Source: Diphasiastrum complanatum (Eukaryota; Streptophyta; Lycopodiopsida; Lycopodiales; Lycopodiaceae). Taken from it: a stretch of DNA of 64,000 nt. The position numbers and the translations under genes were made by a program. The notes below the pieces were generated by a model, which was not told where the DNA came from, ran no database searches, and saw only the letters and a list, made by a program, of their open reading frames with translations. Where the stretch lies: the NCBI GenBank assembly GCA_029204225.1, contig CM055113.1, positions 7,035,852-7,099,851 of the forward strand. The letters run 5' to 3'. Of the stretch, positions 1 to 55,640 are shown piece after piece. How positions within the stretch are numbered: the first letter of the stretch is position 1; every line of letters starts with the position of its first letter.

Positions 1-2390
1 AATATCAAAGGAGTGCGAAGAAAAATTTACAAAGATGAAAACTTGTTTGGATGAAAATGAGATGCTCAAAGAGGAGATCCAAATGTTGAAATCTTCTTTG
101 CATCATTATACAACTAGTAATGATGAGATAAAAATTGCATTTCAATCCATGCGTATCTCATATTTGTCTCTTGTTAAAGATATGGATGTGCTCAACAAAA
201 AGGTCCGAAGCAACAAGAGGAAAAGACTGGTAAACAAGGATATATGTGATCTATCATCCAGAGGAGGTCATAGAAAAAGATGAATCCATGCATTCAAGTA
301 AGTTATAGCTTATTTGGTATTGAATATTGCTTGAACTTTTTGATTCATTCATAATCACTAATTTTGTTATTTGTTCATTTCAACTTTCTGTTGATTTGCT
401 TATTATATACTGTTGTGAATACTATGAGTCCTAATTTCTACTGACATTTTCATGAACATTATGTTTGCAATGCATATCAGCATTGGTTGTTGAAGACCAT
501 TTGGCCGATGAGATTTCAATTGGAAACTCACTAGGCTCTATCTTGACTTCTAGATCTATGAAATCAACTTCAATTACTGATAGCATTATGGATGAAGTTG
601 GAAAAATATTAGACACTACATTGCTTCAGGGGGCATGTGACTTTTCTAGCATCAGTAGGGAAGCATATGCAACAATGCTTAAGATGATAAAGGAGGCATT
701 TGCACAGGTACATATAAAAAAGTTTCCAATCCCATGACCATTTTATCTTTAAAAAAAAGGACATGTTAAACCATGGTATGCAGACAATAGTTGGTAATCC
801 ATCTCATATCAATGAAGTGTATTGCTCGAAAGGAGAAAGTCTAGCATATAACAATTCCAACAATTTATTTATTGACATTAATCAGTTCTTGACATTCATC
901 ATAAATTTTTACGGTATTACAAATGAGAATGTCAATAATAATTTGATAGTTGTTCTCAAGTTAGATGAGTCTGAAATTATAAAAGGACAAAAAATGGAAA
1001 GAGTCAATCTCACAATCATGAATGGAGCACTTTCAAATTTAGAAGACTCAGAAGGCCTCAATTTTAGTGTTCAATCAGAAAATGATATCTGGTGGTTGAC
1101 AGCATTTCAGGTATAGCAGGGATAATCATTTGAATATGGATTTCATATCTAGAATCTTCTCTGTGTTAATATTATGAGGCTAATCATGTTTTTGTATTCT
1201 CTTATAGGTGCTGAAAGAAGACCATAACATTCTCTCATGGATATTTAGTAGAACCTCATATCCTGCCACCATAAAAAATCACATGGAGGGAGTTCCACTC
1301 AATATTCCTGGAATTGGCACTTTCAACATTGAATGGCATTTAGCAGGAGATCTGAAGACATTAAAATGTATGCTCAACGTATCTCATGGCACTAACTCTA
1401 AACACCCTTGTTTGTACTGTATGAAAACAACAAAAGACATGACAAGGAGTACATGAATATCAAGAGAGTGAGAAGATCCTAATTGGAAACTTGTACCACC
1501 GATTCCTCTACGAAATGTTCATATCTGTACATTGCATGCGGAGGTGCGTATTATAGAAAAAATAATATATCTGAATTCCGAGCCAGAGGCCTCTGCGAAG
1601 GAAGCTATTTTTAGATCAGAGGATGTGTTGTCCAAAGCAGGCTTACATAAAGGCCACGTTAAAATAAAAAAAGATGACAAGCTATCAGGTAAAACAGGAA
1701 ATATTCCATGCAAGCGGAGCATTGGAGGATATAAAGCTCGAAGATTTTTATCAAATTATTCTGGCAAACAATATAAGGTTCAATACACGGTTTGGAAAGA
1801 AATTATTGCAACAACTCAAGATTTTGAAGAAGAAGGTTCTACTCGTATACACAAAGTAGAAGTCTGGAAAAAGTTAGACAACATGGTGAAATACTTGAGA
1901 AAAGATAAATTTTCAAATACTGATGTTCAAATGATACAGAAAACAACCAATGAATTTGTGGATGCAGTTCAAAGTGCATGGGGTGTTGATCATATAACAC
2001 ATTATATGATAAGATTTTGATTTTACACTACGATAGACAAATATGTGCAATTAAATTAATTACTTTTGGTACTGATTTAGATTATGTTTTTATGAGCACA
2101 TATTACGACATCATTCGACATTCTTTGCAAGAAATAGTGGAAGTCTTAGCATATGGTCATCGCGGATGGAAAAATCTCATTGGCAAGTCAGAGCGACATT
2201 TCATAAAGGTACACAACATGGCAGGACTAGCACAAAAAATAGCTATATACTGCAACTTTTCCAATGGTTTTACAGAAAAATCCAAATTCGTCATAATAAA
2301 AATCGACGGATTATAAAAAATTTCAAAAAGCATGCAGATTTATACAAGCCAGTAGGCTATAGACACAATAAAATTTTGTATATTAAATAA
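1..2390 (+). pseudogene. Element copy A gene X: RAG1/Transib-like DDE transposase, left end cut by window
   Basis: Multi-exon transposase-like gene, broken by frameshifts. An opening coiled coil with a basic end (KRKR about 217) is followed by a likely exon 481-707 and exons from about 757 and 1208. Candidate catalytic Asp residues are at 964-966 (in KLDES) and 1349-1351 (in AGDLKT), 96 residues apart. The second Asp is 20 residues before a Cys-x2-Cys pair (1409-1420, CLYC), then a CTLHAEVRI block (about 1524-1550). A GGYKARRF motif lies at 1724-1747. A His-x4-His pair is at 2097-2114 and a Glu at 2169-2171 in GMEKSHW-like context. From memory, RAG1 has D600, D708, C727/C730, H937/H942 and E962, a very similar spacing. 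Frame changes occur near 1455, 2015 and 2095. The closest superfamily is uncertain; other C/D-x2-H transposases share parts of this layout. Confidence 0.6.
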
Positions 2391-2420
2391 AAGTACTTAC
2401 AAAGAACAATTCAACAGTAT

Positions 2421-2890
2421 CTAATTTAGATCAACGTAAGCAGCATACACTGCAAAATGAGATGGTTTGAGCATGGAATTCACTGGTCTATATCCTAAAA
2501 TTTTAACCGCAATAGTTTTCTTTACAAAAATTATTTTAAGCACCTTGTTGAAACTATGTCCTCCAAGAAAATGAGACAATGCCTTGATTGCCATAATCAT
2601 AGTTTCACCATATTGATGAAACTTTGAATGGGCAACACTTATCTCATTATTCTTGAAGGACTTCAGATAGTGCCTAGTGCATGATCTCTTAAAAATTCTC
2701 CAGCAGAAGATCTTTGTCCTCCTCGACAAATTGCGAAATCATCAAGAAAAATTGTTTCCGGAAATGATAAAAAACAAAGTAAGCTCCAATATATAATCTG
2801 ACATAACAAATCTACTAGTACTTGATAAGAGACAAAAACTTACGCATTCGACTTTGTCTTCTCTGATTATTGTCTCTCCATCAACGATTA
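2421..2890 (-). pseudogene. Element copy A gene Y, 3' part
   Basis: Reverse-strand remains of an unrecognised protein, convergent with gene X (about 30 bp between their ends). It matches the 3' half of the forward-strand gene at 49,600-50,179, including SHSKFHQHGETMIMAIKALS-like and NFNKVHKIIFVKKTIAVEI-like blocks and an intron between the parts ending IREDK and beginning at the next exon. The match to copy B stops near 2,890, where the protein should continue upstream; instead about 5.4 kb of foreign sequence follows and the gene resumes at 8,276. I know no domain for it. Confidence 0.55.
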
Positions 2891-3519
2891 GGAGGCCAAA
2901 GTTAAGCTTAAATTTAGTTTCTAAGTTTGTAAAATAGTCGAAGGTCAAATGGTGGTAGGTGGGGTGTGCTTCTTCTTACACCATAGATTCATTTGTGTTT
3001 CTTGTGAATGGTGTGGATCTCAATCCCACCTTTTTGCAAGTAGCCAATAGGAAGCAAGGGGCAACGGCCACCCCAAAGATAAAAAGACATCATTTGTAAC
3101 CATTTTCCATGCTTAATGAGAAGGAGGAAACTCTACCATTTTGGAGAGAAGCATCCTCATTTGCTATTCAATACTTGCTAATGCTATTGTGTGTTTGCTT
3201 CTTGCTTTCTAGTTTCCATGTTTTTGGTTTCATTAGTTAATGTTTCTCTATTAGCATGCACAATGAGAAAATGAGCTAACCTCCCCTCTCACCCTCGTTC
3301 TCTCTCTCTTCCTCTACTTCTTCCATCTATCTAACTATCTCTCTCCCTCTCTTTCTCACTCCAAATCATGATGTGTGTGTGGTTAATGTAGGAAACAGTA
3401 GTGTTAAAGTGGAGTAGTGTTAGGAAAAAGAGGAGAAGGCATCTAAATCTAGCAACTTGGCATAGTTAGGTACCTATCTAGTGTTCTAACCCTTTTTGAC
3501 AAGCGGAAGGGTTGCTCAC

Positions 3520-3960
3520 CATCCAATCTACACACCCTAGAAAAGGCAATCAATGGGGTCCAATCATTCTAGAGCATTTTCTCATGCTAGATCTTATGCT
3601 AGTACTATATGGAAGAGCTCTCTCATTGTACATATGGTTCTTTTGAGAGTTAATCACACTTTTTGAGTGTTTCTCTTCTATTCTCTCTCTCTACTCGAGA
3701 GCTAGCCTCTCTTTCTCTCTATACCTGAGAGCAAGCCTCTCTTTCTCTCTCTACCCGAGAGCAAGGGCTCTCTCTCACTCTTTGTATGTGTTTGGGACTT
3801 CTTTTTTCCCATGCTAAGTGTTCGGTTTGAGTGAGAAAGTCTAGGAAGATTTCTTGTACAATCAAGTGATAGTTTCATGTACAATCACACCCACCTGATT
3901 TGTGTGTCCTCACACGCGCTAAAAAGTACACAAAATCTATGGGATCTAATCAATCTAGAG
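3520..3960 (+). mobile_element. LTR-like Copia fragment, forward
   Basis: Contains three near-copies of a CTCTCTCTACCCGAGAGC-type motif (about 3,680-3,765). The same motif, reversed, is in the LTR-like stretch near 7,650 and in the full LTR at 18,035-18,859. It also has a CCAAT context (about 3,562). Boundaries are not resolved; assignment rests on the shared motif and base composition. Confidence 0.4.
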
Positions 3961-4214
3961 GATGTGATATGCTAGAACTTGAGCCATTTCTCCTTCTAAA
4001 TCTAAAAGCTACACATATGATGGAGTTCTAGTAGTGTCACATCATTATTCAGGTATGCATAAATCCTAAACAAATTATATTGTTTGTTAGGTTATATGTT
4101 CATGCACTCATTTCTATGACAACAATACTATTTTGTAGTTATTGCAAAAAAAATACTTTCTAAAGATAATGTGATGTTGAAAATTTGAAATAAAATATAG
4201 TATTTTGAGCAAGC

Positions 4215-4700
4215 TTGGATTATGAAAGAGTTCATTCATGTCCAAATGGCCACATTTTGTACATAAGGACGTATATGAACCGAACCTGCCACAAAAGTGT
4301 TACGTCATTTCTCTATAAGTTCATGACTGCAATTGTTGTTCCAATGCAAGTGTGTGGCACAACTAGTAGATTGGCGTGCCAAGAATCATATCTCTGGATG
4401 TCAATGAGAAGTGAGTAGTGGTTTGAGTTAAAAAATAAACCTCATTATGTAAAGTTTTTCTTGGAAATGGATGACATAAATTCTTTTGGTGTTTGAGCTT
4501 CAACATGATCGACATTGTTCTTGTTAACTATAATGGTTCTCCGTAGTTGAGTATGAAGATGGGGCATTGGTTACTAGCTCTATAGGTTCCCAAAAAGTAC
4601 AAAGTTCAAAACATGGATGTTTATTTAGATCTACTAATTGAAGAATTGTCATGCTTTGAAATGTTGCCAATGTGTAAATAACATCTCAAGGCCTTTGAAC
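4215..4700 (+). pseudogene. CACTA (En/Spm) Tnp2 transposase fragment
   Basis: Broken translation matches the pattern of Tnp2-type transposases: an opening VHSCPNGHILY-like stretch resembles the Tnp2 zinc-ribbon segment (usually CPxxC...YRKEYE), and about 4,605-4,660 reads MDVYLDLLIEEL, like the conserved IDVYLxPLIEEL stretch. Several stops interrupt it. It is a small relic inside the composite insertion. Family is recognised from motif memory only. Confidence 0.45.
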
Positions 4701-5705
4701 AAAAGAAATTTCATTCTTCATGGGATTCTAATGTGGACATATTAAACTATTTTCTAGCTAGGCATTGAACCAACTGGAAAGGTTTAGAGGGTAGATCTAC
4801 AATTTCAAATTTCAGATCTCACATCACGCACATATTTATAATTTTTGTAACGTCAATTCTTAAACTTTATAATATACAACATATGATCAAAGATTATTTC
4901 AAGCTCTTTATACATGTAGTTGAGCTAAACTGGAGTAACTATTCAAGGGAGGGACTCAGTAATTGTTTCATTTCCATTTAACATGTATTCAATATTGATC
5001 ATACATTTGAATTATAGATACTTGAATATATATAGACTTGAAATAAATGATAAATCTGATCATTCCACTTTAGGTATCTGCCAAAAATGTCAATATCCTA
5101 TGGTCAATATCATGCCATCTTTAGTCAACTTTATTTCCATAGTGATCGATGATGAGTTCATTTACGACCGATCAATCATAGAATTTACTTGGTAGAAGAT
5201 ATGACATATAAATTGTGTTTTCCAACAATGTTCCTCTCTATATATTAATATCCCAAATTGTATGTTCCAATAGAAATGGGCAATAATCAACTTCTATGTT
5301 CCAATAAGCCGTAATACACATAGACTTATTATTAGCAACATTAGATAGATTATATATGGAATATTGCTTCAGGATTCATTTAAATCCGAATTCAGATAAG
5401 AAATTTATGGGCATTTCAAATTTGCCAACTCATTTTTTCACAGTGACATTCAGAGGAATATTTTTTAGAATAATAGAATTTGGAAAACATGTTACCTCTA
5501 TAAGCAATCCTTCATATTTAATCAAGGTTATCCCTGAAAACTCAAAGACGGAGCATTAAGAACTTCTTTCAAGTTGAAATAGCAAAATCTTTGAAAAGTT
5601 CAATGTGGGTTCTTAAATTGCAATGAAAGATTAACTCTTGTGACAATGTTAAATCATGTCTTAACATTCAAGGCTCTCTCCCAAGGTTAAAGTCAGGGCT
5701 TATAT
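4701..5705. other. AT-rich stretch without a recognisable gene
   Basis: Short open frames only, none with a motif I recognise. Probably decayed repeat sequence within the insertion. Confidence 0.5.
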
Positions 5706-6039
5706 TATGATAGCCGATTCTTGCTTTTTCATTCACTTTTGGTGGGCCCTTGAATTATTTGAACCATGGAATCACGAGGCGTGGTTCACCCTCCAGGCCG
5801 GCGGAATGGCCGAGTAGGTGGGTGACCTTCCGTGGCATGAAAACTTTTTATTATTATTATTTTCTTCGTTTTTATGATAGCCGATTCTTGCTTTTTCATT
5901 CACTTTTGGTGGGCCCTTGAATTATTTGAACCATGGAATCACGAGGCGTGGTTCACCCTCCAGGCCGGCGGAATGGCCGAGTAGGTGGGTGACCTTCCGT
6001 GGCATGAAAACTTTTTATTATTATTATTTTCTTCGTTTT
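5706..6039. repeat. Perfect 167-bp tandem duplication (2 copies)
   Basis: The unit starting TATGATAGCCGATTCTTGC at 5,706 is repeated base for base from 5,873 to 6,039 with no mismatch seen. It contains a GC-rich middle (GGCCGGCGGAATGGCCGAG) and a (TTA)n tract. The identity implies a recent duplication or an assembly artefact. Confidence 0.9.
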
Positions 6040-6048
6040 TACCGTGAA

Positions 6049-6106
6049 TTTTTTTTTACATGCACCTTCCGCATCTCGCTTCTTGAAAGGTGCATGTAAA
6101 AAAAAA
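6049..6106. repeat. Inverted repeat, 20-bp perfect arms
   Basis: Arms 6,049-6,068 (nine T then ACATGCACCTT) and 6,087-6,106 are exact reverse complements around an 18-nt loop. It lies directly after the 167-bp duplication. The T/A runs at the outer edge could mark an insertion end, or it could be a hairpin in a transcript; nothing decides between these. Confidence 0.85.
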
Positions 6107-6110
6107 AATC

Positions 6111-7290
6111 AAAATAGGCACAAAAATCAAGTTTTGTGAGTCAACTCTTTTTTCTTCATAAAAAAATCAAAACATCATTTTACTAATCTGTGAAAGAGTG
6201 GGCCACCTGATTTTGAACGGCCCTTCTCCGTCGCCTTTGCATAAACAATGGGTCCCACAATCGCATTCTTTGCTCAATGCTGATTTTTCTCTTCCGCTAC
6301 AAAGGCGACATTGAGATTCTTGACAGATCGCTATAGTCGCCTTGCTCCCTCAACACCAATCAGCAGTCGCTGTTGTTGCCTTCGCACTTCAATGTTTATG
6401 ATGCTTTATCCAACAATCACAAACAAATACATTAATCCGGATGTTGTTTCTGAAGCAGCCCTCTTTCTACAGATTGAATGCTGATTCACTCTCTTGGAAA
6501 CTTAACTTCCGGCAATTTGTTCAGTTTTCCAAATTAAAATCAATAAAATATCAGAAGATCAGGAATAGTCACTGAAGGGACAAATAAAGAGAACTTCAAT
6601 TCAGGGTCTGGCTGTAGTGATCAATTGCTAAAAAATAGCTTGCATTGGCAGCACGATCCTTCTAAAGTGGAAATGGAAAATACTGATATTCTTCAGAGAT
6701 CATAGTCGGCGTAGTCAAGATGCTCCATGTACGTCGGAAAAACTCCCCTTGGAATGCGATTATCTCTTCACGGTTCACCACAGGCGAACTTCGTAGAATA
6801 TCCTTTTTCAATACTCGGTTTTACATGGCTTGATCCAACGCTGCTGCTACACAAACAACAAACGACTCTTTCTTCACAAATCTCAATCTCGAACTGTTCT
6901 TCAATTCTAGTTTCTAATTAGGCGCACTCTTTCCCAAATTCAAATTTGAAATGCTAGTACCAATGAAGTTAAATAATTTAAACCTTATGTGACTCGGCAG
7001 TTGTATTAAACTATAACAGATTATTCCGCTCTGAAGCACTATCTTACTTTCTTATGAAGACTCTGAATCGGCCTCGTTCACGTTGAACTTTCAGACAGAA
7101 ATGTCAACGCAGGCAAGACTAGGTTTCCATCGCTAGAGAATCACGTATCGTTTCAAAGATTTTGAGACAGCCTTCACATGAAATTAGCCGTAGATTTCAA
7201 TAAAGGTTGGCCTACTTTCATCAATACTTCAACATTTTAAACTCTAAATGTTACCCCGGGTCTATTGATCTATTAATGAGGGTAACTGAT
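6111..7290. other. No gene recognised
   Basis: Less AT-rich than its surroundings around 6,190-6,380. No convincing open frame or repeat. May be ordinary host sequence captured within the insertion. Confidence 0.4.
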
Positions 7291-7499
7291 CTAGTAATGA
7301 GGGTAACACTCTAACATGAGAATTTTGAAAGTCAAAATTTTGCAATATGAGAAACATGTATCACTCACATCACTTCTTGTAATCAAAACGAGTGAATTGA
7401 CACAATTGCCTTTGTTAAAAATGAGCATTTGTGGACTTTTCAAAGATCTATCAAGATCTATATGCATGAGAGATTGCACACAATCAAATATGGATTGAT

Positions 7500-8000
7500 C
7501 AACTCAGATTTTTAAGAGCTACCAAACATGATTTGAATCTAGGCAAGAGCTCTTACACACAAAACGTAATCATCACTCAAACACAAGCAAGTTTATTACT
7601 CATCCTTGAAAAAACAAAGTATTTTTCATTATGAGAGAGTGAAACCAACATCTAGCTCTCGGGTTAGAGAGAGAAAGTACACAAGAGTTATGACTCCAGA
7701 AATAATCTATCTCTCAAAAGTGTAAATAGTACAAGGAGTATTCACTTCCATATAGTGAAATCTCCTCATGATATGCACCTCACAATATGATTGGGCCTCA
7801 TGGTTTGCACCCTACAATATGATTGGGTCTCATGATTTGCACCTCTTAACATGATTGGGCCAAATGATTAACACCTCTTAATATGATTGGTCTCATGATA
7901 TCTACACCTCTTAACATGATTGGATCTCATGAGCTAATGAGATGTGGATTAGGTTGCATTACTTGCAAATTTTCAATCCTTACATTTTTTGACAAGTGTT
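7500..8000 (-). mobile_element. Copia LTR-like sequence, reverse orientation
   Basis: Lies directly downstream (in the reverse sense) of the Copia RNase H remnant at 8,010-8,275, as a 3' LTR should. It has the GAGAGCTAG...CTCTCTCTAACCCGAG motif shared with other LTRs in the window, and a five-unit minisatellite (7,767-7,927). LTR ends are not resolved. Confidence 0.5.
7767..7927. repeat. LTR minisatellite, five units of about 32 bp
   Basis: Units follow the pattern TCATGATTTGCACCTCTTAA then CATGATTGGGCC. On the reverse strand, the LTR's own sense, each unit presents a CCAAT box. A related unit (ACCTCTAAATTCTATTGGAC) is repeated four times in the LTR at about 18,430-18,550. Confidence 0.8.
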
Positions 8001-8009
8001 ATCATCTCA

Positions 8010-8275
8010 TTAGAACTTGAGATGGAAGCTTATTGACTTTTCTAAATCATTATCAAAGTATGTACAAGGTGGTGGTGGACATGAATCCAACTCCATGATG
8101 ACAGGTGAGTGCCTTGTATTTAGCTTTAGTTGAAGAGAGAGTGAGATAGTGTCCTGCTTCTTTAAGAGCCAAAAGATGGCTCCATCTCCAAGGAATATTG
8201 CAAATGCACTTGTGGAGTTCCTATCAAGCTTGTCACCTACACAACAATAAAAAGCGTGACTTTTGACACAAGGCT
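8010..8275 (-). pseudogene. Copia RNase H fragment fused in frame to gene Y
   Basis: The reverse frame has a decayed Copia RNase H signature: GDKLDRNSTSAFAIFLGDG followed by FWLLKKQDTISLS, where intact elements read WSSKKQxTISLSSTEAEY. It is joined without a stop to gene Y (8,276-8,957), giving an accidental 315-residue open frame. The usual acidic residues after the ISLS block are missing, so it is not a working RNase H. Confidence 0.7.
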
Positions 8276-8957
8276 TGTTATCTATATTATAAGTAGGCAA
8301 AGTGATCAAAGATTTATCAGAAGGAGAAAGGGTAGTGGGTGTTCTAGGGCCTATAAAAGTAGCCCTATTTCGAGCAGGATCAAAATCAGAACAATCATCT
8401 AAATTAACACTCGTATCAATAATAAAAGTATCTATATCTACAATCTTTGACTTTTCAGACTTTGTACCACTAGAAGAAGCTGCCTCAAAAGTGGAGTGCA
8501 CAGCCTCCGAATCGTCAGAAATATTTGACAAAAGGAAAAAAACAAAAGCAAACTGAAAATCAACAAATCTATATTTTTTATTATGAATTGGGCACTCATC
8601 TACAAACTTGAAATCATTATGTAAGTTGGTAAACGTTCTCTCAAACTTAGCTTTATAGATATGCTTGTCGAGTGCCACCAGGTCCTGATAATGATTCATG
8701 TCCTTATTCTGATATCTGAATAGCGGAGTACTGAGCAGGGACTTAAATCTTAGATATATCTCAGAAAATGCCTCCACACCAGGGCCCTCAGTTATAGAAG
8801 GTAGAATAAATAAAAAAAGGAGAAAAGAGGAATTTGAAGTAGTCCAACCTATCAGTAATACCAGATTCATTAAAAAAAGAAGCAAACTAGATTCAAAATT
8901 AGACATTTTAAACAAAAATAACAGAACTAAAGTTCCAAATATCACTCTCGGGCGCAA
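8276..8957 (-). pseudogene. Element copy A gene Y, 5' part
   Basis: The reverse frame includes the blocks SSSGTKSEKSKIVDIDTF, DFDPARNRATFIGPRTPT and LSPSDKSLITLPTYNIDN, which match copy B at 49,090-49,285. Upstream are a Phe/Leu-rich start and TGPGVEAFSEIYLRFKSLL-like residues that copy B lacks. The likely start is near 8,905 (MSNFESSLL) or 8,957. The gene diverges from the H3-like gene across about 830 bp. The protein is soluble-looking, rich in Ser/Asp and has no domain I recognise. Confidence 0.5.
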
Positions 8958-9236
8958 ACCGCAGGTCAGACAAGCACGTCAAGGCAACATGAGCTCGAGA
9001 GAGATATTTGAAGTTGGAGTATCGGATCCAAGCGCAAGAACACCGAGCAGAAAAGAAAAGGGATGCGAAGCATGCTTGAATACGATACCAGATGATGTAC
9101 TATCAGATCCAGGCGCACAATAGTCAGCGAAAGGTAATGAGAGCAAGCGGCACGCTTGAAATCGATATCCAGGAAAGCAATCGTAAATTTGCATGAAAAT
9201 CTGAGTCGAAAAAGACCTATTTGTAAAAAAAAATTG

Positions 9237-9784: not shown

Positions 9785-10537
9785 ATGATGGCCAGGACCA
9801 AATCCACCACCCGTGCCATCATCACTGTACAGCCATCCCAATCTCGTGTTCCCTTTGTTACTTGTCGTAGGCATGGCAGGAAGCAGGTCTGGCTAAGGGA
9901 GATCAGAAAACTTTAGAGATCAATCGAATTGTTAATCCCTAGAGTTCCTTTTGGCCGATTTGTTTGGAATGTCACTCTGTCACTTGGGCTGAATGTTTGT
10001 TTTGCCGTGACATCCATGCAGGCCTTACAGGGTGCTGTAGAAGATTTTATGTCCCAGTTTTTTGAGGATACTTGTCTTTTAGCAGTGCATGGTAAGGATG
10101 TCACCATCATGCCAAAGGATTTCGTCATTCTCAAAAGGCTTCGGGACAGATATTCTGGTTTGCATGTTGATAATGCCAGCACCTCCAGAGACCTGCCTTT
10201 GGATAGAACCAACGTGCCTACTACCTCTAAGAGGAAGAGAAAGCAGTCTATCCCCAAGAAGGCTGGATCTCGACGGTCAGCTGCTTCCCTTCCTCCTAGA
10301 TGTATCCCGGCCAAGAGACCCCATGTCTTTCTGAGCTCCGAGTCAGATGCTGGAGAATCTGACTCAAATCAAGAATCTTCACTCCTTCATGTTAATCGTC
10401 TAGCTCCTCAACAGGTTTCATCACCAAAAGTGTTGATTACCCAAGAGGAGCTAAACAAAATAATAGAGAAATTTGTAAATATTGTTTTTGCTCCTGTACA
10501 TAATCTTTTTGTGAGAATTCCATACGACCCAGCCTAG
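9785..10537 (+). pseudogene. Element copy A histone H3-like gene with long C-terminal extension
   Basis: The product begins MMARTKSTTR, like the H3 tail (ARTKQTARK). It continues with WLREIRKL then RSIELLIPRVPF (H3: [20 protein letters not shown]) and ends the histone fold with FFEDTCLLAVHGKDVTIMPK and DF (H3: [20 protein letters not shown]). An in-frame TAG at 9,914-9,916 sits at the H3 Gln position (RKYQKS); copy B has CAG there, so this is a C-to-T nonsense change. The tail keeps the K4 context but lacks K9 and K27 equivalents and is shorter. After the fold come about 120 residues: Lys/Arg-rich (KRKRKQ), then acidic Ser-rich (SSESDAGESDS). Possibly one gene with the C48 protease downstream. 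A TATA box and G-boxes lie upstream. Confidence 0.85.
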
Positions 10538-45350: not shown

Positions 45351-46520
45351 TGGTGCCATCAAGGAAGCCGTGCTCCTCAATCGACTATGTGCTTCTATTC
45401 AACGAGAAAGATGATAATGGATTATGGGTGCCAAGAAAATATTCAAAAAAATCTTGGGTTTTGATACATCCATCGCCAAGAGGAGCATTTTGAAAAAGCA
45501 AAAGGTCAAAACTATCATTTCGATCTTATTGGAAGGCCAGAATATTGGATTTCAGAACATCATCAAGAGGAAAATCTATTTCTAAAATTCTAGTCCAACA
45601 TGTATATATGCATTCAGAGATAAATGTGCAAGGATTCAATCGTCAGGATCACACAAAAAAAAACAACTATGAGTATTGATATTTTTGATACTTAGATTTT
45701 TGTCATTCATAAATATCCAATATTAAACTTGCCAATCTGATCATTTTTCTTTTGCAGATTTATATCCATCCAACATAAATGAATGGGAGCCAAGTGGATT
45801 TTTAGCAGGTGTGTTAGATATTACTCACACTGATATTGGACAGCTGCAATATCAAGGTAGAACTGCAAAAGATCTAGCTAATAGTGAAATCTTTTTTTAT
45901 GAATCAATGTACATTCCTGATACAAAAGAAAATTTTGGACAAATAGTATCAATTCCATTATCTAGTTTTGAAAGTGATGAATAATATATAATGATGTAAA
46001 AAATTCATTAAAAATGAGCACGAGATCAAAAATAGTCACATTGAGTTGGTATATTTCCTTGAATATATTTGTGGATTTCTTTTTAAGTGTCAATGCACAC
46101 AAAATCCCAACGATGTTTGTATGAAAAAATTTATCAGATAGTCTATTATCTGAACTCATGGATGAAGGCTGAGACAAAAGATCAGATGGAAAAATAGAAT
46201 GTAGAATTAAAATGTCTTCCATGTGCTTCCGTTATCAAATTGAAAAACAAATGTTGAGCTTATGCTTTCATTATCAAAGATGAAAAAAAAATAAAGGTAA
46301 ATGGGTGCCACTCGATCAAGACTTGGAAGCTAGTGGACATTCAAAATAAAAACTTATTGAAATTATATACAATGATGCCATTTTGATGTGTGTTGAGGTG
46401 GAAGAAGATCGGAGTCTAAATTACATAAGGTGGGAACTATTGCTCCTACAAGATGAGATGTACTTTCAAACTTCAGATTTATTTTCAATGGTAAACTCGT
46501 AAGTAACTGTAAACACTCGA
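45351..46520 (+). pseudogene. Element copy B gene Z, with first exon
   Basis: Fuller copy of the gene truncated at 12,921. A first exon from ATG 45,351 reads MVPSRKPCSSIDYVLLFNEK then WVPRKYSKKSWVLIHPSP, with an in-frame TGA near 45,489. Exon 2 starts after CTTTTGCAG (about 45,758) and holds EWEPSGFLAGVLDITHTD and YQGRTAKDLANSEIFFYES. Later parts match copy A (WVPLDQDLEASGHSK, SLNYIRWELLLLQD) with stops. Function unknown. Presence in both copies, opposite the protease gene in each, shows it is a constant element gene. Confidence 0.5.
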
Positions 46521-46869
46521 TCTTTTATGAATAGTTTCAATCAAAACATTCTAATACAATCTCTGTACTAATTGTAACTCGCTTTGTATTAGTTTTATGC
46601 AGGTACGTAAAACACATGAGCTCGAGATCAAATACAGAGATATTGGCAAAACAATCCAACTTATAGAAGAACATTGAGATTCACTATTAGCATATACATG
46701 CCAATCATCATGTCTTTTTATCAATATAGAAAATTGCATTCCAGTATTACACTATGGACACAAACTGATTGTAAGAATCTATATTGATATCAATAAAAAA
46801 AACCCATAAACGGGTTGTTTACATGCAAAATGATTGTATCTTTTTTTTTTTATGTATCTCTATTTACAA

Positions 46870-47254
46870 ATAGATCTCTATTCAGTCAATTTTTCTATAT
46901 TTTCTTTATCAGTATTAGAAACTGATAAGGGAACAGCTCCTTCTATAATCCCATCTTCCTCTGTTTCGGGAAAGGCCTCAATGCCTTTTAAGACAAGATT
47001 ACTCTCTGTTATAATATCGTCTTCCTCTGTATTAGGAAGGACTTCAATTTCTTTTTTGTCATATATTATAAGATCTACATCCTGAGCAACCTTAAGGCTG
47101 TTAAGACAAGAGCAGCTTGTTTTTGAGGGCCCTCGATCTCAGGTGCAACACTTACACCGTTCTGAGCATAGTTTTTCATCAACTCTTGCTGAAATCTATA
47201 TACATCGTTAGGAGTATACGGCTCAAGAGTGAACTGTCATCACAAAACACGAGA
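46870..47254 (-). pseudogene. Element copy B C48 protease, last exon only
   Basis: The reverse frame matches exon 4 of the copy A protease (YTPNDVYRFQQELMKNYAQN, VSVAPEIEGPQKQAA). It retains the splice acceptor context (TGTGATGACAG). The exons with catalytic His and Cys are gone, replaced by the Copia fragment at 47,255-48,278, so this copy cannot encode the protease. Confidence 0.65.
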
Positions 47255-48278
47255 AGTAGTTATTACGGTGGCATACATTAGTAATTGGTGTCCGACAAAA
47301 GCCTTGAAGATTTTGACTCCTTATGAAGTTTGGTATCATTTGGTATCACCATCTAATGTTGAAGAGGAGGGACTGCCATCATCCTCTAATGGATAGCCCA
47401 CTGGTTCTTCAAGCGAACAGCCCATAATTCATCAAGAGGAGCAGATTTATGAAGAGGAACGACTTGTTGAAAACTTTGGACAACATAGTCCAATTTTAGA
47501 GCACTTTGGACAGCAAAGTGTTGACAGTTCAGATCACTTTGGACAGCAAAGCGTTGATCAAAGTAAGGCTGTTGGACAGCCTAAACCAGTCCCTAAATGG
47601 CTGTTGCAGACTTTGCAGGACAGCAAAGTGAACCGCTTCTATGAAGGGAAGACTCGTGTCTCATCTAAATCAGTAGAATTTGCTGATTTTTTTTATTTTG
47701 CTCTTACATCTATTGAGGATAGTGCAATAGAACCTGTTTTTTATGAGCATGCCAGAGGAGTAAAATGTTGGGAGGACGCGATAAAAGAGGAGTATGACTC
47801 ACTCATAAAGAATCAAACATGGGTTTTTGTTGATCTTCCACATGGAAAGAAAGCAATTGGCTGTAATCAAGTACAAGTTCGATGGTACTGTTGTAAGGTG
47901 CAAGGCAAGACTTGTTGCCAAAGGTCATGCGCAAAAGGAGGACATTGATTATGAGGAAACTTTTGCACCTACCGCACGAATAACTACCGTACGGATAGTC
48001 ACTACTTTGGCTGCCCATCATGGTTGGCGTATGCACCAACTTGACATAAAGACAACCTTCCTCAATGGTGATCTTAATGAGGAAGTTTACCTTCAGCAAC
48101 CTGCTGGTTTTTTGGTTGCAGGTCAAGAAGACAAAGTGTGTCTTCTCAAGAAGGCTCTCTATGGACTAAAACAAGCCCCAAGGATGTGGTATCAAAAGAT
48201 ACACACATACTTTTGTGATCGTGGGTTTTCTAGTAGTCATAGTGAATCTACGCTTTATGTCATGCATACATCTCTTGG
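47255..48278 (+). pseudogene. Copia integrase end and reverse transcriptase fragment
   Basis: Starts in the integrase end (ISNWCPTKALK, LTPYEVW), then a linker with repeated FGQQSVD and FGQHSP units, then WEDAIKEEYDSLIKNQTWVF and, after a frame change, ARLVAKGHAQKEDIDYEETF, MHQLDIKTTFLNGDLNEEVY and LYGLKQAPRMWYQK. These are Copia reverse-transcriptase blocks. It ends abruptly inside the RT before the YxDD motif, where H3-like sequence begins. No LTRs are attached. Confidence 0.8.
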
Positions 48279-48962
48279 GTAATCAACATTTTTGGTGACG
48301 AAACCTGCTGAGGAGCTGGACAAATAACAGGAGGAGGAAGGGGTGATGATTCTTGATCTGAATCAGATTCTCCAGCATCTGACTCAGAGCTCAGGACGAT
48401 CCGAGGTCTCTTGGTTGGGATAACTCCAGGAGGAAGGGAAGCAGTTGGCCTTCGAGATCCAGTCTTCTTGGGGACAAGCTGCTTCCTCTTCCTCCTAGAG
48501 GTAGTCGGCAAGTTGGTTCTATCCAGAGGCAGGTCTCTGGAGGTGTTGGCATTATCAACATGGAGAGCATAAAAATGGTCCCGAAGTCTTCTAAGAATGA
48601 TGAAATCTTTTGGCATGATGGTGACACACTTACCATGCACTGCCAAAAGATAGGTATCCTCAAAAAAACTGGGACAAAAAATCTTCTGCAGTACCCTGTA
48701 AGTCCTGCATGGCCGTCATGGCAAAATGAACATCTAGCCCAAGTGACAGAGTGACATTCCTTACAGATCGGCTGAAAGGAGCTCTAGGGATCAACAATTC
48801 AGTTAATCTCTGGAGTTTTCTAGTCTCCCTCATCCAGACCTGCTTCCTACCACGTCTACGGCCAATATCAGGGAGAACACGGGCATGGGATGGTTGTACA
48901 GTGGTTATGGCACAGTGGTTATGGTTGTATAGTGGTTATGGTGATTTGGTCCTGGCCATCAT
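48279..48962 (-). pseudogene. Element copy B histone H3-like gene
   Basis: Reverse-strand counterpart of 9,785-10,450. It starts MMARTKSP, then has an in-frame TAA at 48,936-48,938 within an expanded (CCATAAC)-type repeat. The histone fold follows with RKLQRLTELLIPRAPFSRSV, keeping the Gln codon that is a stop in copy A. A run of seven T on the reverse strand (48,662-48,668; six in copy A) shifts the frame just before EDTYLLAVHGK and VTIMPKDF. The basic/acidic C-terminal tail is well kept (LSSESDAGESDSDQESSP). It ends at the Copia border. Confidence 0.8.
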
Positions 48963-49039: not shown

Positions 49040-50179
49040 AGGGCGCTTGAGATCGATTGGGAAGCTATCTCTTCCACTTATGAAGCTGCTTTTTCTAGTG
49101 GTACAAAGTCTGAAAAGTCAAAGATTGTAGATATAGATACTTTTTTTTTATATGAGCGTTAACTTAGATGATTGTTTAGATTTTGATCCTGCTCGAAATA
49201 GGGCATCGTTTATAGGCCCTAAAACATCCACTACCCTTTCTCCTTCTGATAAATCTTTCATCACTTTGTCTACTTATATTATAGATAATAATTTTTTTTT
49301 GACAATATTCGATATATCAGATCTTTTCTATTTCACTGAAGCTGAGATTCTTTACATTTTGAGCAAAGAGCTTGATGAATTTTCGGATATAATTGATTTT
49401 GATGCTGATGATCTTCTCCCTTGTGTTGACAATGTACATAATGATAAGTTTTATTCAGGAAAAGATTGCTTGAAAATGGTTGTGGAGAAAATGCGCAACG
49501 AAGTAGATGATCTACCTTCTGAGGAGGAATTTCTCAGAATCCAAAGTCAACTTGGTTTTCCACAACCAATTGTCTATTCACCAACAATATTGACATCAAA
49601 AGGTGGATATAATATTGATGGAGAGACAGTAATCAGGGAAGACAAAGGTAAATGCGTAAGTTTTTGTATCTTATCATGTACTAGTAGATTTGTTATGTCA
49701 GATTATATACTAGAGCTTACTTTGTTTTTTATCATTTTAGGAAACAATTTTCCTTGATGATTTCGTAATTCGTCGAGGGGGGCAGAGATCTTCTATTGGA
49801 GAATGTTCAAGAGATCATGCACTTGGGGCACTATCTGAAGTTCTTCAAGAATAATGAGATAAGTGTTTCCCATTCAAAGTTTCATCAACATGGTGAGACT
49901 ATGATTATGGCAATCAAGGCACTGTCTCATTTTCTTGGAGGACATAATTTCAATAAGGTGCATAAAATAATTTTTGTAAAGAAGACCATTGCGGTTGAAA
50001 TTTTTAGCATATGGACAGTGAATTCCATACTCAAATCATCTCATTTTGCATTATATACTGCTTACGTCGATCTGAGTAAGCATGAAAACTATGAGCTGTT
50101 GGATCCATACGAAAGAAGAAAATTGTTGCATGATTCTAAGTTGCAACTTTCATTGGAGAAAGTATCGGAAGCAGAGTAG
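49040..50179 (+). pseudogene. Element copy B gene Y
   Basis: More continuous copy of gene Y. 49,040-49,140 reads ALEIDWEAISSTYEAAFSSG; after a T-run frameshift (about 49,142) 49,152-49,645 has DFDPARNRASFIGPKTST, an Asp/Glu-rich middle (EFSDIIDFDADDLLPCVDN) and IVYSPTILTSKGGYNIDGE. An intron with GT at about 49,650 and AG at about 49,740 precedes ETIFLDDFVIRRGGQRSSIG; a frameshift near 49,850 leads to KFHQHGETMIMAIKALSHFL and a Lys/Glu-rich end. Its start and the shared promoter are deleted here. No known domain. Confidence 0.55.
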
Positions 50180-50239
50180 ATACTACTGAATTGTACTTTG
50201 TAAATATTTTTATTTAATATACAAAATTTTACTGTGTGT

Positions 50240-50770
50240 CTATTGCCTATTGGCTTGTATAGATTTGCATGCTTTTTGAAATTTTTTATAATCTGTCAAT
50301 TTTGTATTATGACGAATTTGGATTCTTCTGTAAAACCATTCAAAAAGTTGTAGTATATAGCTGTTTTTTGTGCTAGTCCCGCCATGTTGTGTACTTTTAT
50401 GAAATGTCACTCTTGCTTGCCAATGAGATTTTTCCATTCCTTGCGATGACCATATGCTAAGACTTCCACTATTTCTTGCAAAGAATGTCGAATGATGTTG
50501 TAGTATGTGCTGCATGTCATGAAAACATAATCTAAATCAGTACCAAAAGTATCTAATTTAATTGCACATATTTGTCTATCGTAGTGTAACATTGAAATCT
50601 TACCATATAATGTGTTATATGATAAACACCCCATGCACTTTGAACTACATCCAAAAATTCACTGGTTGTTTTCTGTATCATTTGTACATCAGTATTTGAA
50701 AATTTATTTTTTCTCAAATATTTCACCATGTTGTCTAATTTTTTTTAAACTTCTACTTTGTGTATACGAG
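50240..50770 (-). pseudogene. Element copy B gene X (transposase), C-terminal part
   Basis: The reverse frame at 50,240-50,515 has His-x4-His at 50,507-50,509 and 50,492-50,494. Exactly 20 residues on is Glu (50,432-50,434) in SLSIWSSQGMEKSHW, followed by STQHGGTSTKNSYILQLFEW. From memory, RAG1 has H937, H942 and E962, the same H-x4-H and +20 spacing. Upstream, 50,620-50,770 matches copy A (RIHKVEV, SAWGV-HITHYM) in another frame. This copy keeps Gln-Gly before Met-Glu; copy A has lost one codon there. Confidence 0.6.
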
Positions 50771-51600
50771 TAGGACTAATGCTTTTTCTTTTGATTAGAT
50801 CTTTTAATTTAATCAGATCCCTGGTTTGATCACATAAAAGAATCAACGGAGGATACATAAAGATATACAGAGATAGATAGAACTGTAAGTTTTTGACATA
50901 GCGATCAATAGTAGCTAGTCGCATTACTCGTGAGAGAGAACATCTCTCTTGTGCCAACGTGCTGATCTGGAAAACAGATAGTGCTCAAGAAAATGTTGTA
51001 TATTCGGTTCTTATAATAGAAGCAATTTTTGCAATACTCTCTTCTGTAATGTGTAAATGTTTGAATGCATGCTAGTAGTAGCTATCTTTCTGTTGTTGTT
51101 TTACTCAACATTATCTACTGTGTACAAGTTTAATTTTTACAATAGATCTGCAGTAGCGATCTGAGGCCTGGAAGAGAATCAGACCGCAGTTAGTAGCAAT
51201 AGCTACTCCTGTCAAGTCGGCTCTATTCGGCCTTCATCCTTTGGGAATTTCTTTATTAGTGCTATCAAAGCGTTCTGACGTTGATAGAATTTTTTTCATC
51301 AGTGGTATCAGAGCGTCTTGACATTTTCGAGATTCCATCAAGTTGGTCGAGGCACTAGTAGTGCACTATGACACCTTAGTGGACACCTCAGCAGTCTATC
51401 TGGGCCATGTCATCTAGTTTCCCAATGGTAGACTCATACAAATCCACCATCATGAGTTTAGGCGTACAACCATGAAATATGACCTTATGCACATTAAGGC
51501 CCCAATTCCCTTATAGTCACAATCAACTACCCGAGACCAGTCGTGGGCATGACATTCTTCCTCTCTTATTCAAGTTTTGTCCTCAGAACTTAAAACTGGG
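50771..51600. other. Border zone between element copy B and Gypsy insertion
   Basis: A short reverse frame (50,745-50,957) shares no similarity with copy A beyond RIHKVEV. About 51,268-51,320 has two tandem primer-site-like phrases (GTGCTATCAAAGCG and GTGGTATCAGAGCG), suggesting a forward LTR border. No gene otherwise. Confidence 0.4.
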
Positions 51601-51629
51601 AAGTTTCTTCTTAAGCTTCCTTCTTGTTC

Positions 51630-54600
51630 CTAGGAATCATCACCGTCTATGTGTCCCTTCCATCGAACCAGATGCTCGATAGCTATACGATTTCTCAATC
51701 GTTTAGTTCTTGTACCCAAGATCTTTTCGGGTTCAAGTCGAGACACACCCGATGATTCATCCAACAGATCCAATTGGTCTCCAGAACCAAGATGCTCACC
51801 TTCATGTAGACTCTTCTTGAGTCGGCTTACGTGAAAAATTGGGTGCACTTGAGTTCCTTCCGGGAGGTCCAACTGCTAAGCTAAGGATATGATCTTTTTC
51901 AAGATCTGATACGGTCCTCTATACCTAGGGGACAATTTATAATGCTTGTCGGTACTCATTACACTAGAATCCTTCGAGATTCTCAAATACACCCAATCCC
52001 CCACTTGAAAGTCTCGTAGTGATCTTTTCATATTTGCATAATGTCGGTCCAGCCTATCTTGGGCACACTGGACATTTTCATGTGCAATGCGTAGCATTTT
52101 GTGCATATCATATAGGAAATCCGCTACCTTTTGAAACTTGATCGTCAGAGTCTCTACTGCAATGGGTGACCTAGGCTCAAAACCATACATAAGCATAAAC
52201 GGGCTATAACCGGTAGCCGAATGCTTACTATTATTATAGGAAAGCTCGATTCAATGGAAGATACTTCTCCCAATCAGATTGTCATTGGAAAACATATGCT
52301 CATAGCATTTGTTCCATCGCCTAATTTGTTCTTTCCATCTGTCCATCCATCTTAGGATGATCAAACGAACTTAAGCTCAAAGTCGTCTCTAGTTTAGCAA
52401 ACATGGCCGACCAAAAGTGACCTGTGAACTTCGGATCGCGATCACGATCGCTCACAATATCACTCAATTATCCATAAAGTGTAAATAGATGCTCTACAAA
52501 TGTCTGAGCTAAATCAAAAGCCTTCACGGTGGTCTTTACTAGAATAAATGTAGCCAATTTGGTAAGACGGTCGACCACAAGCCAAATTACATCATGCTGT
52601 TTATTTGTCCACGGTAACCCAACCACGAAATCCATGGAAATACTATCCCATCTCTTATCGGGGATATCCAGTGAATGCAACAATCCACCAGCCTTAAGGC
52701 GTTCAACCTTATTCAACTGGCATTGATCACACTTGACCACATAAGATTCTACAAAGGGCTTGAGTTTTGGCCAATAAAAGTCCTTTCGTACCAAATCTAA
52801 TGTACGATGTATGTCGGGATGTCCTACGCATAGTGAGTCATGACATTCATAAAGAATTTTATTTTTAACAACATCCACATCAGGCATACAAACCTTCCTT
52901 TTCGTGAACAAAAGTCCATTACAGATAGAGAAGTCATCAGCACCCTTTTTATTATCCCCCCCAGATTGATCACCATGAACATCAGTCTCGCTTGATGAAA
53001 CTGTCAGAGCCCTATTCCAGATTGGTCTAAAATGTGGGTCTTTCTCATACAGACCTCTCAGAGAGAGATAAAATCCTGTATTGATCTCAATGAAGGAAAG
53101 TTCGCTTACTTTACAAATTTCACTAAGTGCATCAACCACCTGATTATAGGTGCCTTTGATATATCACACTTATTATCATACAGGTAATGTCTCCATGATT
53201 TCAATGCATGGATCACCACAAACAGTTCTTTTTCTTGCGTGGTATATTTGACCTGCGCATGGATTAGTTTTTTGCTTTCAAAGGCAACGGGTTGGCCCTC
53301 TTGTAAGAGAACAACTCTAATAGCCGTATCACTCATGTCAATGTTAGTGACGACAAATCTGGATCTGCTATCCTCAAGACTGTTGGAGGGTTTGTGGATC
53401 CCAAGGCAATCCTAACCCTAGTTAATAAGTGAGAGGGATTTGGCACCCTGCGTGTGTAAGTCCAACCCAATGATCACATAGAGATTTGATTAATTAGAAA
53501 GTTAATAAAAGGACTTTAGGTCTTTTTGCGAGACTTTTAATGTCGCAGGGCCTAAATGTCAAGTTAGTGAATAAAGTTGGGTTCGTTCCAATTTGGATAG
53601 TTCCCACTGTTTTTTAAATTTGAATAGTTAGGGAGTCAAAAATGGACCAATAGGATTCAGAGGCCAGGGTCCTCCTCTCTACTATAAAAAGGGACCAACT
53701 CGAGTCTTCATCTCAATAAAGCAGATTGGTTCTCTTGTGAAATGGATTTATGAATGTCCTTGCTCTCTATCACTTTTCTTTCATCTCTCATGCTTTTATT
53801 GTGTTTTGCTAATTGTTGAATTTGATTGTTATTGGGATTGCATGTTTTTATACTTTTTATGAGAGAGAAAGGGAGAGAGAGAAAGTGTAAGTTATCTTCA
53901 TTGTGGATCTAGTGTTAATGGATGTAGTGTTAATGCTTAGGGTTAGTGGATGGTAGAGTTAGATGTGAGTCTTCCATTCATGCTGAATCTGAACTATGCT
54001 ATCGCTCTCATGGAAACGAATCTACGCGTGACAACTAAATTCATCTCCTCGATGCTAGATTGATTAGATCTTGGGTTGAGGATAGGCAAGGAAAGAAACC
54101 CACTACAAAGACTAGAGTTGAGACAATTAGAAGCTTGAGTTTTCGAAAACTCTCATCTAACTTCTCATTCCACCTTATAGGAGGACTTGGCCTACCTTTG
54201 CAGCTTTTCACTCCTTTCAACATATTGTTGAGAGGCATAGCAATCTTTGAGTACTCCTCTACAAATCTACAAAAAAACGTAGTGAAACCTAAAAATGACT
54301 TAAGTTCACAAACCGTTTGAGGAACTGACCATTCCACTACCGTCTTCACATTTTCCTCATCAATCTTGATCCCGACAGAGGTGATCTTATGACCAAGGTA
54401 AAGTTCTTTTTTAATTTGCACTTTGATTCCTTTGCATAAAGCTTCTCTTGACTTCAGGTACCTAATACAGTACAGAGATGCTTAGCATGCTCTTTGAGTG
54501 TTCTACTATAGATCAAAATATCGTCCATAAACACTACCACAAACTACAAAATAAATCGTTCATTTGTTGGAAAGTTGTCGGAGCATTGGTTAAACCAAAG

Positions 54601-54981
54601 GGCAAAACTAAAAACTCGTAGTGGCCAAACCTGGTCTTAAAACTGGTCTTAGATACATCTATGGATGTATTCTGATCTGATGATATCTCGTACGTAGATC
54701 AATTTTCATGAAGTATTTAGTTCCATTTAACCGATCTATGAGATCATCTATCTTGGGCAACAGGTATTTATTTTTTTATAGTAAAGACCCTTGTAATCTA
54801 CACATAATCGAAAACCCCCCATCTTTCTTACTCTTAAGAAGGATAGGTGCTCCCCATGGAGACTTACTTGGTCTGATGTGCCCCATCTTAAGATATTCCT
54901 CGATTTGCCTAGCCACTTCATCCTCTTCCTTTTGACTAAACCTATAAGGTTGTCTGAAGATAGGACGACTATCGGGTGTCT
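51630..54981 (-). mobile_element. Ty3/Gypsy chromovirus fragment (RT, RNase H, integrase, chromodomain-like)
   Basis: Read right to left: reverse transcriptase (RPIFRQPYRFSQKEEDEV, HIRPSKSPWGAPIL, FRLCVDYKGL); RT end (LYLGHKITSVGIKID, ELKSFLGFTTFFCRFVEEYS, 54,041-54,421); RNase H (53,106-53,336); integrase with HHCC-type zinc residues and core start (CDQCQLNK, SMDFVVGLPW, VVDRLTK, 52,468-53,139); integrase tail (VGDWVYLRISKDSS); and a chromodomain-like end (HPIFHVSRLKK, EPEKILGTRTK, HLVRWKG, 51,630-51,872). Gag, protease and RT start are missing. The right border (54,981) abuts the coiled-coil exon of gene X. Integrase has stops near 52,250-52,470. Confidence 0.85.
53381..54050 (+). mobile_element. 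Solo LTR-like insertion inside the Gypsy RNase H
   Basis: Splits the RT/RNase H frame between VVGFFPCLSS and DSRSRFVVTNIDMSD. It starts TGTTGGAGGG (53,381) and has TATAAAAA at 53,693-53,700 with AATAAA at 53,725-53,730, as LTRs do. The right end and target duplication were not identified, so it may be a truncated LTR. Confidence 0.55.
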
Positions 54982-55640
54982 TTTTCTATGACCTCCTTTG
55001 GATGATAGATCACATATATCCTTGGTTACCAGTCTTTTCCTCTTGTTGCTTCGGACCATTCTGTTGAGCACATCCATGTCTTTAACAAGAGACAAATATG
55101 AGATACACATGGACTGAAATGCAGTTTTTATCTCATCATTACTAGTTGCATAATGATGCAAAGAAGATTTCAACCTTGTGATCTCTTTCTTGAGCATCTC
55201 ATTTTCATCCAACCAAGTTTTCAACTTTGTAGATTTTTCTTCGCACTCCCTTGATATTTTTCTTGATTTCTCTTCCAAATAATGTATCCTTTGCATTGAA
55301 TGTGCATTCCCATAGAGCATCAAAATCTCACAGTAACCCAAAAGGCCATTTTTGTCATGACACATAGATTATTAACTGATTTATCGAATGAAAATCTAGA
55401 TGTTGCAATGAACATGGATCAATAGGATACAATGTTTCCGATGACCACAAATCTACATGTTTTAGCTTTTCCTCCTTGTATCGGACCATATCAGACGTTG
55501 ACAATTTGGGTTGCTTTGAATTTCTCGTCCTGAGCGGTGCATATTCTGGTGACAGATCCACATGAAGATGATAAAGCTTTGTCATCAGTATAGTAGTATA
55601 GTAACAAACAACACAATGACAATAACAAAGCTGGAATGGC
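54982..55640 (-). pseudogene. Element copy B gene X, N-terminal coiled-coil part
   Basis: The reverse frame matches 1-283: TWLDENEMLKKEITRLKSSL, DVLNRMVRSNKRKRLVTKD. It also extends further upstream than the window shows for copy A (YLEEKSRKISRECEEKSTKL and a likely first exon from ATG about 55,585, TKLYHLHVDLSPEYAPL). Heptad-like Leu/Ile/Met spacing suggests a coiled coil, followed by a basic patch that could bind DNA or direct nuclear import. It is cut by the Gypsy border at 54,981. Confidence 0.6.

What the first reader, a model, noticed from the sequence alone, without database searches (positions are those of the whole stretch)
1..55640. An undescribed multi-gene plant mobile element present in two inverted copies
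The gene order X> <Y H3-C48> <Z is shared between 1-12,921 and 55,640-45,351 (reversed), although each copy is broken by different insertions. A transposase with a histone, a cysteine protease and two unknown genes in one repeated unit of roughly 8-9 kb is not a layout I know from plant transposons. It could be a large DNA transposon or an integrated virus-like element.
Basis: partly seen in the sequence, partly recalled or inferred. Interest (0 to 1): 0.87.

Follow-up and report, generated by a model that had tools for sequence, protein, structure and literature searches.

The report
Plant transposon carrying its own histone
The two inverted blocks are two damaged copies of a repeated plant DNA transposon with four genes, one of them a histone H3 variant joined to a protease-like domain, which suggests a mobile element that brings its own chromatin protein.

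Summary
Confirmed and extended. Window 1-12,922 and 55,741-44,876 are two damaged copies of one repeated DNA transposon in a 1.74-Gb plant genome. Genome copies give the termini, 5'-CATTAGAG...CTCTAATG-3' (25 of 31 bp match as inverted repeats). None of five two-ended copies shows a target-site duplication beyond chance 1-2 bp; a copia reading frame at one site and two paralogous empty sites at another indicate 0 bp, though two closer paralogues lack 9 bp there.

Gene order is X> <Y H3-C48> <Z. H3 and a C48-like (Ulp1) domain lie in one gene. The H3 domain is unmistakable (up to 79 bits) but only 44-52% identical to canonical H3. Its tail keeps K4 (7 of 8 rows), has A/V at K9 (9 of 9) and lacks the K27 region. 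The H3 fold shows purifying selection between copies; the linker behind it does not. X has the D..D..C2C..H4H pattern of CACTA/Transib-group (CMCT) transposases but no accepted Pfam or PDB match.

Most likely a cut-and-paste transposon whose H3-C48 protein acts on chromatin, perhaps against silencing; that mechanism is inferred. C48 is sub-threshold, no open copy of the H3-C48 gene was seen, and other plants could not be searched.

The parts
1..2387 (+). Copy A, gene X (transposase candidate), from the coiled-coil part to its end; its 5' part and the element's left end lie outside the window (L029:2306-3000)
   Evidence: ORF pieces, match to copy B, left flank; motifs LKLDES, GDLK, CLYC, HICTLH
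2428..2884 (-). Copy A, gene Y, 3' part
   Evidence: 90% match to copy B 50073-49615; ORFs
2885..8274 (.). Foreign DNA inside copy A (not part of the element)
   Evidence: Absent from copies c3198, c9, wB, in which Y continues
8275..8978 (-). Copy A, gene Y, 5' part
   Evidence: ORF 8013-8978 minus; match to copies
9785..10880 (+). Copy A, H3-C48 gene, first exon: H3 tail and fold, basic/acidic linker, start of the C48-like part; H3 domain about 9785-10159
   Evidence: PF00125 4.9e-14; tblastn of copies; frame followed across copies
10991..11851 (+). Copy A, H3-C48 gene, later exons 10991-11177, 11293-11397, 11495-11851 (GT-AG borders read from the sequence)
   Evidence: Sequence, translations; PF02902 E 0.055, below cut-off
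11950..12922 (-). Copy A, gene Z, 3' part; copy A ends abruptly at 12922
   Evidence: 87% match to copy B; copies
54979..55741 (-). Copy B, gene X, 5' part; left end of the element missing
   Evidence: Matches to L029 and c23
50777..54978 (.). Foreign DNA inside copy B, gypsy-like by eye (not part of the element)
   Evidence: Absent from copy A and from c9 and n1/L033, in which X continues
50177..50776 (-). Copy B, gene X, 3' part
   Evidence: 91% match to copy A 1836-2423
49054..50176 (+). Copy B, gene Y
   Evidence: ORF 49137-49754 and match to copy A
48272..48962 (-). Copy B, H3 domain and linker of the H3-C48 gene (frameshifted)
   Evidence: tblastn pieces; match to copy A
47256..48271 (.). 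Copia-like fragment in copy B in place of the first C48 exons
   Evidence: ORF 47809-48279; aligns with copia frames
46878..47255 (-). Copy B, last exon of the H3-C48 gene
   Evidence: Match to copy A 11473-11851
45222..46780 (+). Copy B, gene Z (approximate limits)
   Evidence: ORFs; copies
44876..44906 (.). Copy B, Z-side terminal inverted repeat, CATTAGAGAAACTTAGAGCCC... on the + strand
   Evidence: Conserved boundary in 10 fetched copies and copy B; 25 of 31 bp match the left end in three right ends tested

Best explanation
SHOWN: the finding is two damaged copies of a repeated, TIR-bounded DNA transposon of about 9.7 kb (my sum of parts) with gene order X> <Y H3-C48> <Z; one gene fuses a divergent histone H3 to a C48-like domain. 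LIKELY: it inserts without duplicating target bases. INFERRED: X is the transposase, probably a divergent member of the CACTA/Mirage/Chapaev/Transib (CMCT) group; it would bind the CATTAG ends, excise the element and insert it at an unstaggered cut. INFERRED, less sure: the H3-C48 protein enters or tethers to chromatin through its histone fold. Because its tail keeps H3K4 but lacks K9 and K27, chromatin containing it would escape H3K9/K27 silencing, while the protease-like domain would strip SUMO or a similar modifier from silencing factors. The element would thus carry its own anti-silencing protein, as VANDAL transposons do with VANC/KIU, but built on a histone.
For: Copies: 42 matches from 40 scored of 2,945 first-look candidates; left end 40 scored of 1,589, 36 of 40 starting at the same base; right end 40 scored of 1,881. 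Termini. No duplication beyond chance 1-2 bp in 5 of 5 two-ended copies; copia frame intact across the joined flanks; two empty sites with 0 bp. H3: 4.9e-14 and 78.8 bits; present in 6 of 7 non-redundant fetched copies, which were found with a query outside the H3 domain. Tail: K4 in 7 of 8, A/V at K9 in 9 of 9. H3 fold dN/dS 0.456 against a neutral null of 0.79, 0 of 200 simulations as low; linker 0.86 against 0.85. X: 3 of 5 stretches at 0.37-0.59 against 0.73-0.76, 0 of 100 each; intron control neutral. X motifs: D1 10 of 11, D2 5 of 6, C2C 6 of 6, H4H 6 of 6, matching the CMCT signature given in PMC12730594 (passages). Precedent: Ulp1 domains in VANC-type genes of VANDAL elements (PMC13317346 passages).
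Against: C48 is below Pfam's cut-off, gives nothing in the PDB and for another copy's pieces, and its usual Asp position looks like Asn by eye. C48 stretches show no purifying selection; the last exon lies above the null (0.92, 199 of 200 simulations at or below it). Stop codons are not depleted in the H3 fold (59 codon pairs against 58 expected; the null carries existing stops along). Frame-shift controls in the first run were not discriminating. X has no accepted Pfam match and no PDB match; its last catalytic E is not assigned; CMCT elements make 2-5 bp duplications. At the C19 site two closer paralogues lack 9 bp spanning the insertion point. No open copy of the H3-C48 gene was seen among the copies read. 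No expression, protein or activity data.
Confidence: 0.5

Rival explanations
1. The H3-C48 protein serves transposition itself: the histone fold tethers the transposase complex to nucleosomes or to H4, or helps pack the element's ends, and the protease-like domain is structural or processes element proteins. No anti-silencing role.
For: Fold constrained but C48 stretches not; the H3 contact residues H113, D123 and R129 are kept in the 8 rows that cover them.
Against: Does not explain the tail that keeps K4 and lacks K9/K27, nor the parallel with Ulp1-bearing anti-silencing genes (passages).
Confidence: 0.25
2. An ordinary capture: a known type of transposon (CACTA-like) picked up a host H3 fragment and a Ulp1-like gene as passengers, without function for the element.
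For: Gene capture by plant transposons is common (PMC13317346, passages); the copies read are all decayed; C48 and linker evolve neutrally between copies.
Against: The H3 fold is constrained between copies, is found in nearly all copies at one place, is only 44-52% identical to canonical H3 yet keeps the whole fold, and shares a reading frame with the following gene part.
Confidence: 0.2
3. An integrated virus-like element (Polinton-like or other DNA virus) with its own histone and a viral-type protease.
For: Ulp1-like proteases and histones occur in some large DNA viruses (recalled).
Against: No polymerase, capsid or ATPase family in the larger ORFs scanned; no relative of an X or an H3 ORF in IMG/VR (close relatives only); unit only about 9.7 kb with short TIRs.
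Confidence: 0.03
4. The two blocks are a segmental duplication of host genes, or a pile of unrelated repeats.
For: Segmental duplications do exist here: copy A's region recurs at C22:25.58 Mb at 99.7% over 4,450 bp.
Against: Dispersed copies with shared termini and unrelated flanks; constant gene order.
Confidence: 0.01

Closest known systems
[quoted passage not shown]
   Same: D..D..C(2)C..H(4)H order in X and CA..TG termini; PlavakaB ends are CATCA..TGATG (PMC12730594, section 20 and passages).
   Different: No target duplication seen here against 2-5 bp there; no sequence match of X to Pfam or PDB; H3-C48 gene.
VANDAL / KIU (Kaonashi) Mutator-like elements of plants
   Same: Multi-gene plant transposon with a Ulp1-like domain in an accessory gene, there tied to anti-silencing (PMC13317346, passages).
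   Different: No MULE transposase match; no 9-11 bp duplication (that length recalled); the protease-like domain is fused to a histone H3.
Spy (PHIS) transposons
   Same: TIR-bounded DNA transposon without target duplication (PMC4482050, passages).
   Different: Spy inserts in AAATTT and its families were reported without new ones beyond the earlier set; here 0 of 5 sites is AAA^TTT, termini begin CATTAG, and no PHIS transposase match.
Histone H3 (canonical and CENH3)
   Same: Whole histone fold, ARTK start of the tail, fold alignment without loop insertion in most rows.
   Different: 44-52% identity, short tail without K9 and the K27 region, C-terminal linker and protease-like domain.
TET/JBP- or SET-carrying DNA transposons
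   Same: Transposons that carry a chromatin or epigenetic gene (PMC12730594, passages).
   Different: They carry enzymes; here the gene encodes a histone-fold protein.

Membership tests
TIR DNA transposon | Many dispersed copies with common termini and unrelated flanks | tested here: met
TIR DNA transposon | Terminal inverted repeats | tested here: met
   25 of 31 bp match, three right ends against one left end
TIR DNA transposon | Target-site duplication | tested here: not met
   5 of 5 two-ended copies lack one beyond chance 1-2 bp; known exception class is Spy
[quoted passage not shown]
   C2C 6 of 6 and H4H 6 of 6 in the right order after D1 and D2; last E not assigned; no profile match
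CMCT clade | CA..TG termini | tested here: met
   CATTAG in 11 of 12 left ends; CTAATG at the right ends listed
CMCT clade | 2-5 bp target duplication | tested here: not met
   caveat
Mutator-like / VANDAL / KIU | MULE transposase domain | tested here: not met
   No such Pfam match in X pieces
Mutator-like / VANDAL / KIU | 9-11 bp target duplication (recalled) | tested here: not met
Spy | Insertion within AAATTT | tested here: not met
   0 of 5 sites
Histone H3 | Core histone fold | tested here: met
   PF00125 4.9e-14 and 5.4e-22; PDB H3 chains
Histone H3 | Assembly into nucleosomes | not testable with these tools
   No experiment; structure model failed
Peptidase family C48 (Ulp1) | Profile match above cut-off | tested here: not met
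   E 0.055 and 0.017, below cut-off
Peptidase family C48 (Ulp1) | His, Asp/Asn, Gln, Cys catalytic pattern | tested here: inconclusive
   H-W and QQxDxFSC present, Asp position reads Asn by eye
Polinton / integrated DNA virus | Polymerase, capsid and ATPase genes | tested here: not met
   None among the ORFs scanned; small ORFs were not scanned

The most novel reading that the evidence does not exclude
A new lineage of plant DNA transposon with blunt, zero-duplication insertion that encodes its own hard-to-silence histone: an H3 variant that keeps K4, lacks K9 and K27, and carries a SUMO/ubiquitin-type protease domain to disarm silencing at its own copies.
Probability: 0.33. Interest if true: 0.95.

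Novelty: new variant of a known kind. Interest (0 to 1): 0.85.

Why it matters
Transposons are known to fight silencing with sequence-specific anti-silencing proteins, SET methyltransferases or TET enzymes (PMC13317346 and PMC12730594, passages). My searches of the open-access library (listings only) showed none described with its own histone; that library lacks most subscription papers. If the reading holds, the element attacks silencing at the nucleosome itself, and a natural H3 lacking K9 and K27 would be a direct test of how far transposon silencing depends on those residues. A TIR element that inserts without a target duplication would be a second point: the one eukaryotic group I met in the papers with that property is Spy (passages).

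Tried and rejected
Rejected readings: segmental duplication of host genes (dispersed copies with shared termini); unrelated nested repeats (constant gene order); MULE, Spy, Polinton (see membership test). A first TIR search around copy B alone found nothing because B lacks its X-side end; a first guess of the left end at window 55741 was wrong and was corrected with L029.

Led nowhere: Rfam at gathering thresholds; scans for an X ORF in IMG/VR and genome contigs and for an H3 ORF in IMG/VR (they find close relatives only); PDB searches with C48 and X; AlphaFold of the H3 ORF with five near-identical sequences (pLDDT 33). The first dN/dS run with frame-shift controls was not discriminating, so a mutation-spectrum null was used. 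In one search part names with spaces were cut, so its columns for the left end and the X N-terminus read as absent and were ignored. Near-identical duplicate loci (c370, c4b, c8b) were dropped before the selection and motif counts. The host's own H3/CENH3 and an empty site for the C4 copy could not be obtained (server busy).
Full report
WHAT IS THERE. The window is G000:C22:7035852-7099851 in a genome of 1.745 Gb and 5,176 contigs. Contig lengths that I saw run from 101.6 Mb (C1) to 42.5 Mb (C23), then 10.9 Mb (C24) and 0.39 Mb (C25). From memory this would fit the clubmoss Diphasiastrum complanatum with 23 chromosomes, but no call names the host. The inverted similarity is real: six collinear blocks at 80-93% identity. 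Neither copy is complete inside the window.

A REPEATED ELEMENT. Searching the genome with window 11473-12922 gave 42 matches at 83-100% from 40 scored of 2,945 first-look candidates. Ten copies were fetched with 10 kb upstream and 8 kb downstream. Three are duplicates of others (c370 of c8a 99.8%, c4b of c4a 99.7%, c8b of c3198 99.7%), leaving seven. All ten and copy B end at one boundary...TCTAATG, after which the flanks are unrelated except between duplicates. The left boundary was found by fetching 3 kb left of the window: L029 and copy c23 start together at TTAGAGAAAATATNGGCCC. Searching with that end scored 40 of 1,589 first-look candidates; 36 of 40 matches begin at the same base, two begin seven bases earlier, and the other two are the query's own place and its duplicate. 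Twelve left ends read show CATTAG in 11 of 12, with unrelated flanks; L029 itself reads TCTTAG. A right-end search scored 40 of 1,881 candidates, at 94-100%. First-look counts are not copy numbers. The two ends are inverted repeats over 31 bp with 25 matches, for three right ends against one left end.

INSERTION WITHOUT DUPLICATION. Five copies have both ends: c23 (4.79 kb), L032 (1.72 kb), C19 (3.7 kb), C4 (6.5 kb) and C8 (8.4 kb). Their flanks share no direct repeat except 2 bp in C8 and 1 bp in L032; 8-bp comparisons have 5-7 mismatches and 9-bp ones 5-8. The C8 copy sits in a copia reverse-transcriptase frame: the joined flanks read ...FKIKY|NANGAIDRRKARLVARG..., and the 10 listed matches that span the junction (some of them duplicates, four with stops elsewhere or partial) have no gap. 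A 2-bp TA duplication would break that frame. The C4 flanks also keep an open frame across the junction. For the C19 copy, places on C70 and C3 carry the joined flanks as 77 bases without a gap (71 of 77 identical). Against this, two other places on C3 are closer outside the junction (66 of 68) but lack 9 bp that span the insertion point, 7 on one side and 2 on the other. Since C19 and the less similar pair share those 9 bp, I read this as a later deletion, perhaps an imprecise excision, but it makes C19 less clean. I conclude that 0 bp is likely; a larger sample is needed.

GENE X. Its pieces (about 1-2387 in copy A; more complete in L033) give a coiled-coil N-terminal part, then LKLDES, GDLK, CLYC and HICTLH. 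D1 is kept in 10 of 11 copies covering it, D2 in 5 of 6, C2C in 6 of 6, H4H in 6 of 6. PMC12730594 (section 20 and passages; [quoted passage not shown] Motif order and termini point to CMCT; the duplication length does not, the last E is unassigned, and no Pfam match reaches its cut-off (best E 0.0049), nor does PDB give a match. X shows fewer amino-acid changes than a neutral null in 3 of 5 stretches (dN/dS 0.37-0.59 against 0.73-0.76, 0 of 100 simulations as low) but not in two (0.69, 0.70); an intron control is neutral.

GENES Y AND Z. No family match above cut-off.

IS H3 ALWAYS THERE? The copies came in by a query outside the H3 domain. The H3 fold is present in 6 of 7 non-redundant fetched copies (c5 is truncated before it) and in both window copies.

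MECHANISM. The anatomy shows a transposon. That X moves it is inferred from motifs, termini and constraint. That H3-C48 counters silencing is inferred from the constrained fold, the altered tail, and the precedent of Ulp1 domains in VANC-type anti-silencing genes of VANDAL elements (PMC13317346, passages). A role in tethering is the main rival.

NOVELTY. Library searches (listings only) showed no transposon-encoded histone; the library is open-access only. Whether X, Y, Z or the fusion occur in other plants could not be tested: the protein database was off and the contig collections searched are viral and prokaryotic.

Noticed in passing
window 9973-14422 and G000:C22:25584093-25588542 (L002): The region of copy A recurs on the same contig at 99.7% over 4,450 bp, with the element's left end likewise repeated: a segmental duplication or an assembly duplicate.
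   Followed up: partly
L009/L010 (copy c8a), concatenated 12423-15953: The right end of one copy abuts an inverted partial copy (X-Y-H3) of the same element.
   Followed up: no
L032:59-1779: A 1.72-kb internally deleted, two-ended derivative that keeps X's 5' part and the right end; it may belong to a non-autonomous subfamily.
   Followed up: no
L055 and L056 against L053 and L054: Paralogues of the C19 insertion site differ by 9 bp exactly around the insertion point, possibly an excision footprint.
   Followed up: partly
window 18984-20556, 24056-25807, 58566-61153: Copia-like retrotransposon pieces by eye from the ORFs; 19123-20815 and 58566-60308 are 79% alike.
   Followed up: no
window 5705-6041 and 44378-44578: Two perfect 167-bp tandem copies, and two 100-bp tandem copies 96% alike.
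   Followed up: no
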